From the NCBI GenBank assembly GCA_003220345.1, contig QHSC01000087.1, forward strand, positions 34,857-98,856: DNA of 64,000 nucleotides. The letters run 5' to 3'. The translations under genes and the position numbers were made by a program. Positions within the stretch are counted from its first letter, which is position 1. Each line of letters begins with the position of its first letter. The DNA is from Candidatus Rokuibacteriota bacterium (GTDB taxonomy: Bacteria; Methylomirabilota; Methylomirabilia; Rokubacteriales; CSP1-6). Below the pieces are notes generated by a model. That model searched no databases. It had not been told where the DNA came from and was given only the letters and a program-made list of their open reading frames with translations. Below are positions 27,980 to 34,275 of the stretch, in pieces.

Positions 27980-29266
<1,287 letters not shown>

Positions 29267-29274
29267 GGCGCCGG

Positions 29275-29745
29275 TCAGGACTGCGGGCGCTTCCAGTCGA
29301 AGGCGATGAAGTCCCCCGCGGCGGGGTCCCAGCGAAAGGCCCCCGCCTCCACCACCCGCCCCTCCATCACCGAGAGCACGACGTAGGTCGCGTCCGGATA
29401 CGCGGGCTCTCCATTGACGAGGGCGTTGCGCTTGTCCGTGGGAGAGAAGTAGGCGCCCGTGTCGATGTGGGAATGATAGATGGTGAGGACGCGAAAGCCC
29501 TGCGCCTCTCGCCGGCCGATGGCGATCAGGTCGGCGGGATCGATGTAGTAGGCGGTTCGCGCATCGCGCGGGTGGCGCACGGGATCCTTGGCGTGAAGCT
29601 CGTTCTGCATGTTCCGGCAGGGCATCAAGATTCGCTCGAGTGGCGGCTCTGGCCGGTCCAGGACCACGCCACAGCATTCCGACGGGTACTCAGCGACGGC
29701 CTGCGCTTCGACCCGCGCGTATTCTTCGGGCGTGAGAACAACCAT
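29275..29745 (-). CDS. JAMM/MPN metallopeptidase, Mec-like
   Basis: The 156-residue product has a perfect JAMM motif, His91-Ser-His93-x7-Ser101-x2-Asp104, with the upstream glutamate Glu23 in [10 protein letters not shown]. Its place directly after a MoaD/ThiS-type carrier gene and a cysteine synthase gene is the mec-cysO-cysM arrangement of mycobacteria. There Mec hydrolyses the CysO-cysteine adduct. Here it may also trim the carrier's C-terminal tail, as QbsD does for QbsE in Pseudomonas (inference). The ATG starts two bases after the carrier's stop. Confidence 0.85.
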
Positions 29746-29747
29746 CG

Positions 29748-30059
29748 TCAGACGAGAGCTGCCTCGGACGAGGACAGGCCAGCCCCCCCGGCGAGGGCCG
29801 GAATAATCGAAACCTCGTCCCCGTCCTTCAGGGTGGTGCCGAGCCCGTCCAGCGATTCGATCGCCTCGCTGTTCACGTACACGTTGACGTGATCGTGGAT
29901 CTCCCCCGCCTCGTTGCGCACGAGGCCTTTGAGCGCCCCGAATCGATCCTCGAGCTCGTCGAGCAGCCCGCGCACGTCCTGCGCGTCCACGGACACCTTG
30001 TCCTTGTTGTTGGTCGCCCGGCGAAAGGGCGTGGGTATGTACACCTCGACGCTCATCAT
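29748..30059 (-). CDS. MoaD/ThiS-family sulfur carrier, CysO-like, with C-terminal extension
   Basis: A ubiquitin-fold carrier of 102-103 residues (ATG 30057-30059 or 30054-30056). The family hallmarks RFGALKGLV, HVNVYVNSE and LKDGDEVSIIPALAGG are clear. In relatives the chain ends at GG, which is adenylated and thiocarboxylated. Here the GG (residues 90-91 of the short form) is followed by AGLSSSEAALV. The tail must be removed for activity if this is a normal carrier. The neighbouring JAMM peptidase is the obvious candidate. A run of seven G/C at the GG codons is the one place where a sequencing slip could matter. Confidence 0.87.
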   Translation of the reverse strand: MMSVEVYIPTPFRRATNNKDKVSVDAQDVRGLLDELEDRFGALKGLVRNEAGEIHDHVNVYVNSEAIESLDGLGTTLKDGDEVSIIPALAGGAGLSSSEAALV

Positions 30060-30090
30060 TGCTCTCCTTGCCGTTCGGAACGAGACGCTT

Positions 30091-31035
30091 TCAGAACTGC
30101 ACGCTGAGATAGCGCTCACCAGTATCGCACAGCACGGTGACCACGACCCGGTCGGCGGGGAGCGCCTCGGCGACCCGACAGGCCGCCCAGACATTCGCTC
30201 CCGCCGAGATGCCCACGAGCAGCCCTTCCTCGCGCGCCAGTCTCCGCGAGGTCGCGGTGGCGTCCTCGTCGCGCACCAGGATCACCTCGTCGAGCACGTC
30301 CCTATTCAAGACGCCGGGCACGAAGGACGCGCCGATGCCCTGGATGCCGTGGGGGCGAGCCCGCCCGCCCGAGAGCACGGGCGAGCGCGCCGGCTCGACG
30401 CCGATCACGCGCACACCGGGCACGCGATCCTTGAGGACTTCCCCCACTCCCGTGACCGTGCCCCCCGTCCCCACTCCCGCCACGAAAGCGTGGATGCGCT
30501 CCTCGGTTGCCTCCAGGATCTCCAGCGCGGTGGCCCGTCGATGCGCCTCGGGATTGGCCGGGTTCTCGAACTGCTGGGGCATGAAATAGTCCGGGTGCTC
30601 GCGCTGGAGCTCCTGGGCCGCGAACACGGATCCGGACATCCCCTCGATGGCCGGGGTGAGATGGATCTCCGCCCCGTAACGCGCGAGGAGGCGCTGACGC
30701 TCGACGCTCATGTCATCCGGCATGGTCAGGATGAGCCGGTAGCCGCGCACCGCGCAGACCATGGCGAGCCCGATGCCCGTGTTGCCGCTCGTGGGCTCGA
30801 CCACGGTGGCGCCGGCCTTGAGCGCGCCGCGGCGCTCGGCGTCCTCGATCATGGCCACGGCGATGCGGTCCTTGACGCTGCCCCCCGGATTCAGCGATTC
30901 CATCTTCGCCAGCACGGTCGCGCCGTCGCTCTTGGGCAGCCGATTGAGCTTCACGAGCGGCGTTCCGCCGACCACGTCGAGCACCGAAGCCGCGATCTTC
31001 GGCCGGCCCGTGGCTGCCAGTCTTCGCTGAGTCAT
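30091..31035 (-). CDS. cysM: Cysteine synthase, CysM/CysK family
   Basis: A 314-residue PLP enzyme. The Schiff-base lysine is Lys55 in NPGGSVKDRIA. PTSGNTGIGLA and AGVGTGGTVTGVG phosphate-binding motifs are present, and it ends CDTGERYLSVQF. The carrier and JAMM genes directly downstream suggest it uses a protein thiocarboxylate and O-phosphoserine like mycobacterial CysM; sequence alone cannot exclude ordinary O-acetylserine sulfhydrylase activity. ATG 31033-31035 was chosen (MTQRRLAATG); longer upstream frames enter the rrf2 gene. Confidence 0.9.
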   Translation of the reverse strand: MTQRRLAATGRPKIAASVLDVVGGTPLVKLNRLPKSDGATVLAKMESLNPGGSVKDRIAVAMIEDAERRGALKAGATVVEPTSGNTGIGLAMVCAVRGYRLILTMPDDMSVERQRLLARYGAEIHLTPAIEGMSGSVFAAQELQREHPDYFMPQQFENPANPEAHRRATALEILEATEERIHAFVAGVGTGGTVTGVGEVLKDRVPGVRVIGVEPARSPVLSGGRARPHGIQGIGASFVPGVLNRDVLDEVILVRDEDATATSRRLAREEGLLVGISAGANVWAACRVAEALPADRVVVTVLCDTGERYLSVQF

Positions 31036-31043
31036 GGCCACCA

Positions 31044-31073
31044 ATCCTATCGGGAACGTCAGTTCCCCGCCAA
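31044..31073 (-). promoter_or_regulatory. Candidate operator-promoter of cysM-cysO-mec
   Basis: Minus strand TTGGCG (31068-31073) and TAGGAT (31044-31049) are 18 bases apart. Sixteen of the 18 spacer bases are the perfect palindrome GGGAAC-tgac-GTTCCC (31052-31067). A T8 run lies just upstream. It sits in the 46-base gap after the rrf2 gene, and is a good candidate operator for that regulator. Confidence 0.5.
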
Positions 31074-31081
31074 AAAAAAGG

Positions 31082-31525
31082 TCAGATGTGATACATCGGT
31101 TTGGCCAAGGCGCGACGCTCGAAGGCTTGACGCCGGAGATCCTCGAGCGTGGTGCCGTCGACGACGGAATCCACGGCCTCCGAGACGGCGCGCCAGAGCG
31201 CCACGAGATCACCGGCAGCGTCTCCCGGCATCGCCCGCCCCGACCGTCCCGCGCCGCCCACGCCCGAGGGACCCTCGACGGCGCGCAGCACGGCGCCCAC
31301 GGTGATCTGGGCGGGCGGCTTGGCCAGCCGATAGCCGCCGGAAGAGCCGCGGCGCGAGTGGAGAAATCCCGCCCGCTTGAGCCCGAGCAGCACCTGCTCG
31401 AGATAGCGCTGGGGAATGCTCTGGCGCTTCGCGATGTCCTGGATGGGCTCGAGCGTGTCGGGATCTCGAAGGGCGAGGTCGAGCATGGCCTTGATGGCGT
31501 ATTCGCCCTTGGCGGATATCCTCAC
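31082..31525 (-). CDS. Rrf2-family transcription regulator (CymR-like, no cysteines)
   Basis: The 147-residue product starts [18 protein letters not shown] and has the Rrf2 winged helix: [27 protein letters not shown] recognition region and a [13 protein letters not shown] wing. It contains no cysteine, so it cannot hold the [2Fe-2S] cluster of IscR or NsrR. Cluster-free members such as CymR control cysteine metabolism with cysteine synthase as partner. Its place just before cysM supports that role (inference). The GTG start overlaps the hemB stop as GTGA. Confidence 0.87.
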
Positions 31526-32505
31526 GGGCGGCGCCGCTCCAGCACGCGCGCCGCCTCCTTGGCGAAGTACGTGATCACGATGTCGGCCCCCGCCCGGCGG
31601 ATGCCCGTCAGCGCCTCCATCATGGCCGCCTCTTCGTCGAGCCAGCCGAGCTGGCCGGCGGCGCGGATCATCGCGTACTCGCCCGACACGGAATATGCGG
31701 CCACGGGCAAACCGAACTCCGCCTTCACCCGTGAGAGCACGTCCAGGTACGGCAGCGCGGGCTTGACCATCACGATGTCCGCGCCCTCGTCGACGTCGAG
31801 GGCGACCTCGCGCATGGCCTCCATGGCGTTGGCGGGATCCATCTGGTACGCGCGCCGGTCGCCGAACTGCGGGGTGGAGTCCGCCGCCTCGCGGAACGGC
31901 CCGTAGAAGGCGGAGGCGTACTTGGCGGAGTAGGCCATGATCGGCGTCTCCTGGTACCCGCTCTCGTCGAGCACCTCGCGAATGGCGGCCACGCGCCCGT
32001 CCATCATGTCGGAGGGAGCCACGAGATCCGCTCCCGCCTCCACGTGGGAGAGCGCGGTGCGCGCGAGCAGATCGAGGGTGGGATCGTTCTTGACGCGGCC
32101 GTCCTCGACCACGCCGCAGTGGCCGTGGCTCGTGTACTCGCAGAGGCACACGTCGGTGATGACGAGGAGGTCGGGAATCGTGTCCTTCACGGCGCGGACC
32201 GCCTGCTGGATGATGCCGTCCTCGGCGTACGCCTCGCTGCCGCGGGGGTCCTTTTCTGCGGGCAGGCCGAAGAGGAGCACGGCGGGGATGCCCATGGACG
32301 CCGCGTCCTTGCACTCCTTCAGCAGCTCGTCCACCGAGAGGCGGCTCTGCCCCGGCATGGAGCCGATGGGCTCGCGCACTCCGCGGCCATGGGCCACGAA
32401 GAGCGGGTAGACGAAATCATCCACCTTGAGGTGGGTCTCGCGGACCATCTTGCGCAGGAGCGGCAGCTCGCGGAGACGACGGGGTCGGTACAGGGGCGAC
32501 GGCAT
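31522..32505 (-). CDS. hemB: Delta-aminolevulinic acid dehydratase (porphobilinogen synthase)
   Basis: A 327-residue enzyme joining two 5-aminolevulinates. The two Schiff-base lysines are Lys195 ([17 protein letters not shown]) and Lys248 ([10 protein letters not shown]). Zinc-site cysteines Cys120, Cys122 and Cys130 in [14 protein letters not shown] show the zinc-dependent type. ATG at 32503-32505. It follows hemD by 37 bases. Confidence 0.97.
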
Positions 32506-32542
32506 GGCTGATCTCTCCTTCTCTCTTCTCTGGGCGCCTGGG

Positions 32543-33358
32543 TCAGTGGCGCGGGGCGCCCTTGGACTTGTAGTACTTTTCGAGCGCGGCGGCGAGGCCG
32601 GCGATGGTGTACTCCTCCGCCACGATCTCAGGCTCGAGCCCCGCCGCGGCGGCGGTGGCCCGCGTGACGGGCCCGATGCAGGCGACGGTGACGCCGGCCA
32701 TGAGCCGCTCGAGCTCGCCGGGCGCGAAGATCGACACGAAGTGACGCACCGTCGAGGAGCTGGTGAACGTCACCGCGTCGACCACGCCCGCTCCCAGCGC
32801 CTGCTTGAGCTCCGCCATGTTCTCCGAGGCGGGGCGCGTCCGGTACGCCGCCACTTCCTCGACGCGCGCGCCCAGCCTCTCGAGCTCGCGCACGAGGAGA
32901 TCGCGCGTCTCGGCGGCCCGCGCGAGCAGGACGCGCTGGCCCGGCCGCACCAGGGCGGCGAGCGCGCGCGCGAGCCCCTCGGCGACGTATTCCTCGGGCA
33001 CGACCGTGGCGGGAAGGCCCACCGACGAGAGCGCCTCGGCGGTGGCGGGCCCGATGGCGGCGACACGGCAGCGCCCGAGGGCGCCCGCGTCGAGGCCGAG
33101 GGCGGACAGCCGGGCCTTCACCATCTCCACGCCATTGACGCTCGTGAAGACGGCCCAGTCGTACTCGCCGCCCCGCCGGAGGGCGGCGTCCAGCGGCGCC
33201 CAGGTCGGAGGCGGCTCGATGGCGATCGTGGGCGCCACGAGCACGCGCGCGCCCGCGGCCTCGAGCAGCGCCACGAAGCTCGCCGCCTGCGCCTTGGCGC
33301 GCGTGACGACAACCAGCCGGCCCGCGAGCGGCCGCGCGGTCTCCACGGCCGCCATCAT
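32543..33358 (-). CDS. hemD: Uroporphyrinogen-III synthase
   Basis: The 271-residue product shows the weakly conserved two-lobed HemD fold: [15 protein letters not shown] at the N-terminus, [36 protein letters not shown] and [10 protein letters not shown]. It cyclises hydroxymethylbilane. The ATG (33356-33358) overlaps the hemC stop. Context between hemC and hemB supports the call. Confidence 0.93.
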
Positions 33359-34275
33359 GCCGGGCCCCCCCGGCTCGCGTCCAGGAGCTCGGCGGCGCCG
33401 CGCGAGAGGAGATCCTCGGCCAGGGCCCGGCCGAGCGCCGCGGCCTGCGCAGACGCGCCCTGCGTGCGTCCCCTGACCATGGTCTTGCCGTCGGGACTCG
33501 CCACGAGGCCGTCCAGATGAAGCGTGGCGCCGTCGAGCTGGGCATGGCCCGCCACCGGGGTGTGACATCCCGCCCCGAGTCTCTCGAGAAATGCCCGCTC
33601 CGCGAGCGCCGCCATTCTCGTCCCAGTGTCGTCCACGGCCCCCAGAACTTCAAGCACCGCGCCGTCGGCCACCCGTGCCTCGATGGCCAGGATCCCCTGC
33701 CCGACCGCCGGGAGAAACTCCTCGGCAGGCAGCGTTTGCGCGTGGCTCGGTCGCGCGCCGAGACGGTCGAGCCCCGCCTGCGCCAAGATGATCGCCTCGT
33801 ACTGGCCCTCCGCCAGCTTGCGGAGCCGCGTATCGACATTGCCGCGAATGGGCTCGGCGCGAACATCCGGGCGTCGATGAAGGAGGAGGGCGCGCCGGCG
33901 AAGGCTCGAGGTGCCGACGCGCGCGCCCGGCGGCAAATCGTCGAGCCCCGCCTCGTCGCGGGTGACGAGGACGTCGCGGGGATCCGCCCTCGGCGCGTAG
34001 GCGACGAGCACGAGACCGTCGGGGAGGAGCGCGGGCATGTCCTTCAGGCTGTGGACGGCCGCGTCCACGCGCCGTTCCAGGAGCGCCTCCTCGATCTCCT
34101 TGACGAAGAGCGCCTTGCCCCCGAAGTCCGCGAGGGCGACGTCGGCGAGCCGGTCGCCGGTGGTGGTGATGAGCGCGACGTCGATCTCGACGCCGCGGCC
34201 GCGCAGGCGCTCGGCCACCAGCTCCGTCTGGGCGAGGGCAAGACGGCTCCCCCGGCTCCCCAGGGTGAGCCTCAC
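33355..34275 (-). CDS. hemC: Porphobilinogen deaminase (hydroxymethylbilane synthase)
   Basis: A 306-residue enzyme that polymerises four porphobilinogens. LGSRGSRLALAQTE at the N-terminus, HSLKDMPALLPDGL, GTSSLRRRALL and the dipyrromethane-cofactor cysteine in ERLGAGCHTPV are all present. I took the GTG at 34273-34275, which overlaps the hemA stop as GTGA and gives the family start VRLTLGSRGS. Confidence 0.96.
   Translation of the reverse strand: MRLTLGSRGSRLALAQTELVAERLRGRGVEIDVALITTTGDRLADVALADFGGKALFVKEIEEALLERRVDAAVHSLKDMPALLPDGLVLVAYAPRADPRDVLVTRDEAGLDDLPPGARVGTSSLRRRALLLHRRPDVRAEPIRGNVDTRLRKLAEGQYEAIILAQAGLDRLGARPSHAQTLPAEEFLPAVGQGILAIEARVADGAVLEVLGAVDDTGTRMAALAERAFLERLGAGCHTPVAGHAQLDGATLHLDGLVASPDGKTMVRGRTQGASAQAAALGRALAEDLLSRGAAELLDASRGGPA

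What the first reader, a model, noticed from the sequence alone, without database searches (positions are those of the whole stretch)
29275..31035. CysO-like carrier with an 11-residue tail after GG, beside a JAMM peptidase and cysteine synthase
Carrier proteins of this group normally end at GG. Here IIPALAGG is followed by AGLSSSEAALV before a stop that is neatly two bases ahead of the next gene. The next gene is a JAMM peptidase with a perfect H-S-H-x7-S-x2-D motif and cysM is upstream. This suggests a carrier made as a precursor, matured by the JAMM enzyme, then thiocarboxylated for cysteine synthesis. It would unite the mycobacterial Mec-CysO-CysM pathway with QbsD/QbsE-style trimming.
Basis: partly seen in the sequence, partly recalled or inferred. 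Interest (0 to 1): 0.75.

Follow-up and report, generated by a model that had tools for sequence, protein, structure and literature searches.

The report
Locked sulfur carrier with disposable tail
A bacterial sulfur-carrier protein is encoded with eleven extra residues after the two glycines where such carriers must end to be loaded with sulfur; the peptidase encoded next door, which in some relatives is part of the same protein, is predicted to cut them off so that the carrier would then be charged, likely for making cysteine.

Summary
Window 29748-30059(-) is a CysO-like ThiS/MoaD carrier with 11 residues after IPALAGG; its stop lies two bases before a JAMM gene with intact catalytic residues, and a cysteine synthase lies upstream. 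Run lengths of 4-10 G never put the stop at GG.

The tail is a lineage-wide pattern. Of 54 countable cysK-linked orthologues, 0 stop right after PALAGG, against 8 of 25 second carriers from the same lineage. Tails differ even between carriers with identical bodies, and many contain tandem copies of the carrier's own PALAGG end. In five genomes the carrier is fused in frame to the JAMM; 49 database fusions with a complete motif all keep PALAGG at the junction. Best reading: the carrier is made locked and the JAMM unlocks it.

JAMM uncapping of capped carriers is known (QbsD/QbsE, PtmS1/PtmS2; DRJAMM on MoaD-MoaE), so this is a new variant. The synthase is CysK-type, not CysM, and a mycobacterial-type CysO ends at GG, which weakens the proposed link to the mycobacterial pathway. 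The genome's only detected E1 has TGA at its catalytic cysteine, a place conserved in 13 of 13 genes read: probably selenocysteine. Cleavage and sulfur flow are untested.

The parts
29748..30059 (-). ThiS/MoaD-family, CysO-like sulfur carrier made as a precursor, 103 aa (or 102 from the second ATG at 30056)
   Evidence: ThiS 51.5 bits; CysO 3dwg and 4n6e in the PDB; cysK-linked orthologues found in 55 genomes
29784..29801 (-). PALAGG end of the mature carrier; predicted cut after the second G
   Evidence: homology to solved carriers stops here; PALAGG at the junction of 52 of 52 carrier-JAMM fusion rows
29751..29783 (-). 11-residue tail AGLSSSEAALV, predicted to be removed
   Evidence: sequence; tails hypervariable in relatives
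29783..29789 (-). run of seven G on the GG codons
   Evidence: sequence; effect of run lengths 4 to 10
29275..29745 (-). JAMM (Prok-JAB) peptidase, 156 aa; the only Prok-JAB match of the genome
   Evidence: PF14464 52.7 bits; one match in the own genome
29434..29475 (-). catalytic motif H-S-H-x7-S-x2-D ([14 protein letters not shown]); the motif glutamate is at 29677-29679
   Evidence: the exact motif is in 51 of 54 JAMMs seen next to the carrier; of the other three, one is cut by a contig end and two have a loop insertion
30091..31035 (-). cysteine synthase, CysK type, likely user of the carrier's sulfur
   Evidence: TIGR01139 429 bits; found upstream of the carrier in 52 of 55 loci
31082..31525 (-). 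Rrf2-family regulator; best regulator-specific match after the superfamily model is CymR, below its cut-off
   Evidence: present in 51 of 55 loci

Best explanation
The carrier is encoded in a locked form, its two-glycine end capped by a tail, and the JAMM peptidase encoded beside it is predicted to cut after the glycines so that an E1 enzyme would charge the exposed end with sulfur, likely for the CysK-type synthase of the same gene cluster. Shown by sequence: the tail, the intact JAMM, the conserved cysK-carrier-JAMM order, the variable tail on a conserved body, in-frame carrier-JAMM fusions with PALAGG at the junction, and one detected JAMM and one detected E1 in the genome. Inferred: the cut and its place, activation by that E1 (itself a probable selenoprotein), and delivery of sulfur to CysK. 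The tail's sequence seems to carry no information: it drifts, slips and duplicates because any cap, even the JAMM itself, would be removed.
For: 0 of 54 countable orthologues stop right after PALAGG, 8 of 25 second carriers do; in 22 genomes with both, the cysK-linked tail is longer in 20. 0 of 120 listed homologues stop at the first ALAGG; carriers with bodies at least 98% identical have tails 62% identical on average and only 30% share the length. Carrier-JAMM fusions in 5 genomes, at least 3 label changes on the tree, 49 database fusions with a complete motif and PALAGG at the junction. The three family genomes without a JAMM over cut-off also lack this carrier. In 48 other genomes tested, 32 of 32 with a tail or an E1 fusion have a JAMM over cut-off, 12 of 16 with a GG end do. 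The junction is low-confidence, probably flexible, between two well-modelled domains. Precedent: capped carriers need a JAMM in Streptomyces platensis (PMC6006322, passages); DRJAMM cuts MoaD-MoaE (PMC8832034, passages).
Against: No cleavage data. Carrier and JAMM are also neighbours where CysO ends at GG (Tsukamurella), so adjacency alone does not mean trimming. 29 of 54 tails are only 1-2 residues. 23 of 120 homologues and 2 of 54 orthologues end in GG anyway, by a repeat or an extra G, and might be charged there without a cut. Second carriers of G066 and G068 end in GGR though no JAMM over cut-off was found there (genomes 82% and 77% complete). Six of 57 family genomes show no full-length E1, one of them (G039) rated 100% complete. 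Nothing shows that CysK takes sulfur from the carrier rather than sulfide.
Confidence: 0.72

Rival explanations
1. The JAMM mainly frees cysteine from a carrier-cysteine adduct, as Mec does in mycobacteria, and another protease trims the tail.
For: Mec has that role in the CysO pathway (PMC3227635, passages), and the synthase is next door.
Against: The synthase is CysK-type. Only one Prok-JAB was detected in the genome, and the carrier is fused to that JAMM in five genomes with GG at the junction. The two roles could also coexist in one enzyme, since both are cuts after GG.
Confidence: 0.13
2. The tail stays on. The carrier works with it, or, in repeat-bearing forms, is charged at a later GG.
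For: 23 of 120 homologues and L005 of the 54 orthologues end in GG by a later copy of the repeat or similar. Tails are tolerated in great variety.
Against: Charging needs a C-terminal glycine (passages), and 52 of 54 orthologues and 97 of 120 homologues do not end in GG. A carrier fused to a whole JAMM has no free glycine end.
Confidence: 0.07
3. The carrier-JAMM pair is a protein-modifying system: the carrier is attached to targets and the JAMM removes it; trimming is incidental.
For: Iyer and colleagues proposed such use for some JAB-linked systems (PMC1779556, section 16); the JAMM has weak similarity to archaeal desampylase (41 bits, cut-off 130) and its fold to PfJAMM1.
Against: The constant neighbour is cysteine synthase (52 of 55 loci). 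E2-like proteins were not searched for beyond the ORFs read around the carrier.
Confidence: 0.06
4. The tail is an assembly error in the G run.
For: There is a 7-G run, and P0003, a database protein with the same body, shows a frame that another run length would give.
Against: No run length from 4 to 10 ends the protein at GG. Only 3 of 54 orthologues have a run of 7 or more G there, yet all 54 have a tail.
Confidence: 0.02

Closest known systems
QbsE/QbsD and PtmS2-PtmS3/PtmS1: capped sulfur carriers with a JAMM protease
   Same: Carrier with residues after GG beside, or served by, a JAMM. PtmS2 and PtmS3 have caps MV and C, and deleting ptmS1 stops thioacid formation (PMC6006322, passages; QbsD as cited there).
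   Different: There the caps named are one or two residues and the sulfur goes to natural products. Here caps run to 35 residues or more, are partly tandem repeats, or are the JAMM itself, beside a cysteine synthase.
DRJAMM and MoaD-MoaE of Deinococcus radiodurans
   Same: A JAMM cuts a natural fusion behind a carrier's glycine end and so activates it (PMC8832034, passages).
   Different: The fused partner there is MoaE, not the JAMM, and the product is for molybdopterin.
Mec-CysO-CysM of mycobacteria
   Same: JAMM, CysO-like carrier and a cysteine synthase together (PMC3227635, passages; operon seen in Tsukamurella).
   Different: The synthase here is CysK-type. Tsukamurella CysO ends at GG. 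Other genes and other order (hem and Rrf2 genes, not clpS).
ThiS/MoaD + JAB + cysteine synthase neighbourhoods of Iyer, Burroughs and Aravind 2006
   Same: Same three gene families, and the prediction that JAB may free ThiS or MoaD fused to other proteins (PMC1779556, sections 12 and 16 read).
   Different: Repeat-built tails and ThiS/MoaD-JAB single chains were not in the parts I read; a phage TAPI-JAB fusion is listed in its table.
MoeB selenoproteins of marine metagenomes
   Same: ThiF/MoeB protein with in-frame TGA; MoeB is a listed selenoprotein family (PMC1088965, PMC2398784, PMC13188914, passages).
   Different: Here the E1 has a rhodanese domain in front (by my reading) and is the only E1 detected in a genome with a capped carrier.

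Membership tests
Capped sulfur carrier with JAMM uncapping (QbsE/QbsD type) | ThiS/MoaD fold ending in GG followed by extra residues | tested here: met
   54 of 54 countable orthologues
Capped sulfur carrier with JAMM uncapping (QbsE/QbsD type) | JAMM with intact catalytic residues encoded with it | tested here: met
   JAMM follows in 54 of 55 loci
Capped sulfur carrier with JAMM uncapping (QbsE/QbsD type) | the JAMM removes the cap after GG | not testable with these tools
   needs MS; only comparative support
Capped sulfur carrier with JAMM uncapping (QbsE/QbsD type) | an E1 that thiocarboxylates the trimmed carrier | tested here: inconclusive
   one E1 gene detected in the genome, with TGA at the catalytic Cys position; no activity data
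Mec-CysO-CysM pathway | CysM-type synthase using O-phosphoserine | tested here: not met
   passes CysK and not CysM models; differs from Tsukamurella CysM in the loop next to the recalled phosphate-binding Arg. The Tsukamurella enzyme itself passes only the general cysKM model, so the models alone do not define this subtype
Mec-CysO-CysM pathway | CysO ending at GG | tested here: not met
   11-residue tail here; Tsukamurella CysO ends at GG
Mec-CysO-CysM pathway | JAMM that hydrolyses carrier-cysteine | not testable with these tools
   -
Selenocysteine MoeB/ThiF | in-frame TGA at a conserved Cys, with conservation after it | tested here: met
   13 of 13 genes read; Cys at that place in the 7 of 23 loci where the motif was found
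Selenocysteine MoeB/ThiF | SECIS hairpin just after the TGA | tested here: inconclusive
   hairpin pairs in 13 of 13 and 5 of 9 four-fold sites invariant against 1 of 92 elsewhere, but three longer stretches were not more stable than shuffles
Selenocysteine MoeB/ThiF | tRNA-Sec, SelA and SelB in the genome | tested here: inconclusive
   tRNA-Sec over cut-off, 67.9 bits; SelA and SelB not searched

The most novel reading that the evidence does not exclude
A self-unlocking sulfur relay: the carrier is always born locked, its lock is a hypervariable tail grown by tandem copying of its own cleavage site (PALAGG), and in at least two lineages the lock is the very peptidase that opens it, so that carrier and JAMM are one self-processing precursor. 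The freed carrier is then charged by an E1 whose catalytic residue is selenocysteine. Because every tail is discarded, slippage in the G-rich end is tolerated and can even switch between free and peptidase-fused forms.
Probability: 0.45. Interest if true: 0.75.

Novelty: new variant of a known kind. Interest (0 to 1): 0.6.

Why it matters
Ubiquitin-like proteins of eukaryotes are made as precursors and trimmed to GG. Here a bacterial metabolic relay appears to do the same, with natural variation on a large scale: one conserved body, a different cap in almost every relative, and caps that are the protease itself. That is a ready-made set of substrates for learning what a JAMM reads (the folded carrier and GG, or the residues after it too), and natural single-chain substrate-enzyme proteins for structural work. 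It also pairs a sulfur carrier with a probable selenocysteine E1, which makes the role of selenium in protein thiocarboxylation testable.

Tried and rejected
Considered and set aside: (1) A G-run error hiding a GG end: no run length from 4 to 10 gives it. (2) Programmed frameshifting at the G run to make carrier-JAMM: in the window 5 or 8 G would be in the JAMM frame, but only 3 of 54 orthologues have a run of 7 or more G there, and among 45 unfused loci with a start found the JAMM frame offset is 2 in 40 and 1 in 5. (3) Tail as a conserved functional peptide: tails differ between carriers with identical bodies. (4) A tandem repeat in the window's own tail: none found; a 21-base repeat of 3.9 copies is in relative L006. 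(5) JAMM within about 4 kb as a test in distant loci: uninformative, since the JAMM is often elsewhere in the genome (of 76 loci, 23 with a tail of 1-2, a tail of 3 or more, or an E1 fusion have no JAMM motif nearby by the regex used and other classes also mostly lack one). (6) SECIS by energy: 54-base stretches of three E1 genes were not significantly more stable than shuffles (z 1.58, 1.23, -0.79); two of those stretches also began at different places relative to the TGA. I rely on synonymous-site conservation and the short hairpin. (7) Literature: the search for QbsD/QbsE and for HcyS/HcyD gave nothing on those systems themselves; the quinolobactin, Wolinella methionine and 2-thiosugar papers are not held. 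HcyS/HcyD as a further trimmed carrier is recalled only. (8) A VIA-align look and a second structure job were not run.

Rows dropped before counts: L135 (carrier frame broken before GG) from the tail count, so 54 of 55; L017 counted as 35 although its contig ends there; L017, L127 and L135 left out of the tree (52 of 55 rows); L152 left out of the second-carrier count (no recognisable GG end), so 25 of 26 fetched; 48 of the 76 non-Rokubacterial loci were given; only the 120 listed of 1762 and of 1250 proteins were examined; P0176 (JAMM start missing) and three cut-off fusions were left out of the 49.

Full report
WHAT IS THERE. On the minus strand the window holds, in order of transcription, hemB (31522-32505), an Rrf2 regulator (31082-31525), a cysteine synthase (30091-31035), a ThiS/MoaD carrier (29748-30059), a JAMM peptidase (29275-29745) and a hemL-like gene (27980-29266) (hemL is my reading of the ORF). 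The carrier's best solved relatives are CysO of Mycobacterium tuberculosis (3dwg) and of Amycolatopsis (4n6e), matched over residues 2-92, so homology stops at GG. Eleven residues follow, then TGA, two bases, and the JAMM's ATG. The JAMM has E in YPSECCG and [14 protein letters not shown]. The synthase passes the CysK model and not the CysM model. Varying the G run from 4 to 10 never gives a GG-ended carrier.

WHERE IT COMES FROM. The closest named relatives of the carrier are four Candidatus Rokuibacteriota contigs (69-81% identity), so I take it for a member of that group (inference). Of 95 genomes of the phylum, 92 match the carrier. I located the cysK-linked carrier in 55 genomes, 54 of family f1 (which has 57 in the search) and one of f2. 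Upstream cysK was found in 52 of 55 loci, the Rrf2 gene in 51 and hemL downstream in 51; several misses are loci with little flank. A JAMM follows in 54 of 55; the 55th contig ends first.

THE TAIL ACROSS RELATIVES. Of 55 loci 54 could be counted. None stops right after PALAGG: 29 have 1-2 extra residues (12 have one, mostly R), 20 have 3-35, 5 are fused in frame to the JAMM. Two of the 54 still have GG as last residues, L005 through a repeat and L016 through an extra G. In 33 unfused loci the carrier's stop overlaps the JAMM's start by four bases. Many of these genomes hold a second carrier, usually after a threonine-synthase-like gene and before a small NIL-like protein (names by my reading). 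I fetched 26; of 25 countable, 8 end at GG, 15 have one extra residue, 2 have two. Fisher p for a GG end is 4e-5; in 22 genomes with both, the first tail is longer in 20, equal in 1 and shorter in 1. These tests ignore shared descent. In the three fusion genomes whose second carrier was fetched (G049, G051, G054) that second carrier ends at GG.

THE TAIL LOOKS DISPOSABLE. A database search gave 1762 homologues, of which the 120 listed were examined. None stops at the first ALAGG; 23 of 120 end in GG through a later copy or extra G. Tails are 2-53 residues; the ranking may favour tails like the query's. Pairs with bodies at least 98% identical (79 pairs among 121 sequences, the window's included) have tails 62% identical on average, and 30% share the length. 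P0002 and P0003 have the window's body over the 90 residues compared and quite different tails. Of 121 tails 43 contain at least one more exact PALAGG, up to three. In L006 this is a 21-base tandem repeat of 3.9 copies; in the window's own tail no repeat was found, but it looks like a shortened form of P0001's AGRPSLGGAGRPSSEAALV. P0003's tail contains the stretch that a 6- or 9-G run would give in the window.

THE PEPTIDASE AS THE CAP. In G049, G051, G054, G061 and G085 the carrier continues in frame into the JAMM (a sixth, G077, has a broken carrier frame and is not counted). On a 52-row tree the label needs 3 changes, which starred branches force; they may be three gains or fewer gains and a loss, so at least two lineages. 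A search with one fusion gave 1250 proteins, of which the 120 listed were examined: 52 have both pieces, 49 of them with the full catalytic motif, and all 52 read PALAGG at the junction (the expression used allowed several other residues), followed by varied linkers. The AlphaFold2 model of the L030 fusion (mean pLDDT 87, pTM 0.60) has two well-modelled domains and pLDDT under 50 at residues 88-91, at the junction. Foldseek matches it to CysO (4n6e, 3dwg), to PfJAMM1 alone and with SAMP2 (5ld9, 5lda) and to a bacterial Ubl-deubiquitinase complex (8tyx). The model says nothing on the geometry of a cut.

JAMM PRESENCE. The own genome has one Prok-JAB match, the window's. The three f1 genomes without a JAMM over cut-off (G066, G068, G070) also lack this carrier, which may be missing contigs. 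Of the 76 non-Rokubacterial loci, 48 genomes were searched: 32 of 32 whose carrier has a tail or an E1 fusion have a JAMM over cut-off, 12 of 16 with a GG end do (p about 0.009 by hand, relatives counted apart). Against: G066 and G068 have a second carrier ending GGR. In sister families the carrier is fused to an E1 instead (8 of the 9 class-level loci fetched, L154-L160 and L162), again with GG inside; a JAMM lies further down the same stretch in 5 of these 8 (L156-L160). An Aliarcobacter plasmid has cysteine synthase, a JAMM and a carrier ending GGI within 3.3 kb.

HOW IT MOST LIKELY WORKS. Shown: gene order, tails, fusions, intact JAMM. Inferred: the JAMM recognises the folded carrier and cuts after GG; an E1 activates the new end and puts sulfur on it; the CysK-type enzyme is the likely user, because it is the constant neighbour. 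Charging at a C-terminal glycine is established for such carriers (passages in PMC3227635 and PMC6006322). O-acetylserine should be available: cysE passes its cut-off in 19 of 21 genomes searched, the own included. Where Tsukamurella CysM reads LRN the window's enzyme reads IQG (that this Arg binds O-phosphoserine is recalled).

THE E1. The only ThiF match of the genome is a rhodanese-ThiF protein with an in-frame TGA in ...GLVPS*SEAGVLG... (domain order by my reading). Of 23 other loci scanned for this motif 7 showed it, all with Cys; in 16 the pattern was not found. The TGA is at that place in 13 of 13 E1 genes read, the own included. In the phylum search 51 of 57 f1 genomes have a ThiF match with one TGA, whose exact place I checked only in the 13; 6 have no full-length match, among them G039, rated 100% complete. 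In the 13 codons after the TGA 5 of 9 four-fold sites are invariant, against 1 of 92 elsewhere (p = 9e-6), and a CCUGGG-CGUGCU-CCCAGG hairpin pairs in 13 of 13 (one with CCCGGG). Energy tests on longer stretches were not significant. tRNA-Sec passes its cut-off in 79 of 95 genomes, the own included at 67.9 bits. SelA and SelB were not searched. So selenocysteine is likely. MoeB is a listed selenoprotein family (PMC1088965, PMC2398784, PMC13188914, passages), and the last mentions a Methylomirabilota genome with 63 predicted selenoprotein genes, so this part is not new as a family.

KNOWN OR NEW. Uncapping by a JAMM is known: capped PtmS2 and PtmS3 with PtmS1, and QbsD as cited there (passages); DRJAMM on MoaD-MoaE (passages). 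Iyer and colleagues listed cysteine synthase + ThiS/MoaD + JAB operons and predicted that JAB frees fused carriers (sections 12 and 16 read, other passages seen). In ten searches of the held library, of which I saw listings and the papers named here, I met no report of repeat-built caps, of ThiS/MoaD-JAMM single chains in cysteine operons, or of this system in Rokubacteria; none of the searches asked for tandem repeats by name, and the library lacks most subscription papers. Hence: new variant of a known kind.

Noticed in passing
G000:C19, L133 minus strand about 1378-2598 (TGA at 1678-1680): The genome's only detected ThiF/E1, with a rhodanese domain, has an in-frame TGA at the catalytic Cys, the same in 13 of 13 genes read, followed by a conserved hairpin: probable selenocysteine.
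   Followed up: partly
window 29783-29789: The 7-G run on the GG codons: 5 or 8 G would join carrier and JAMM in one frame, 6 or 9 would give a long tail whose letters occur in database protein P0003. Slippage could make mixed precursors.
   Followed up: partly
L002 1501-1779 (+), own genome contig C339: A second carrier ending GGR between a threonine-synthase-like gene and a small NIL-like protein, with no JAMM of its own in the stretch: perhaps a sulfur relay for another amino acid, sharing the JAMM.
   Followed up: partly
L154-L160, L162 and Chloroflexi-labelled loci such as L037 and L041: The carrier is fused in frame to an E1 with GG inside the chain, which would also need a cut (14 of 76 loci).
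   Followed up: partly
window 27980-33568: The cysteine synthase-carrier-JAMM genes and an Rrf2 regulator sit inside a run of heme-synthesis genes (hemB, hemL, and hemD-like by my reading); the arrangement is kept in most relatives. Why sulfur transfer and heme synthesis are joined is unexplained.
   Followed up: partly
L135 (G077) and L136 (G075): JAMMs of these two loci have extra residues inserted inside the H-S-H...S-x2-D loop; similar insertions occur in a few database fusions such as P0141, P0156 and P0179.
   Followed up: no
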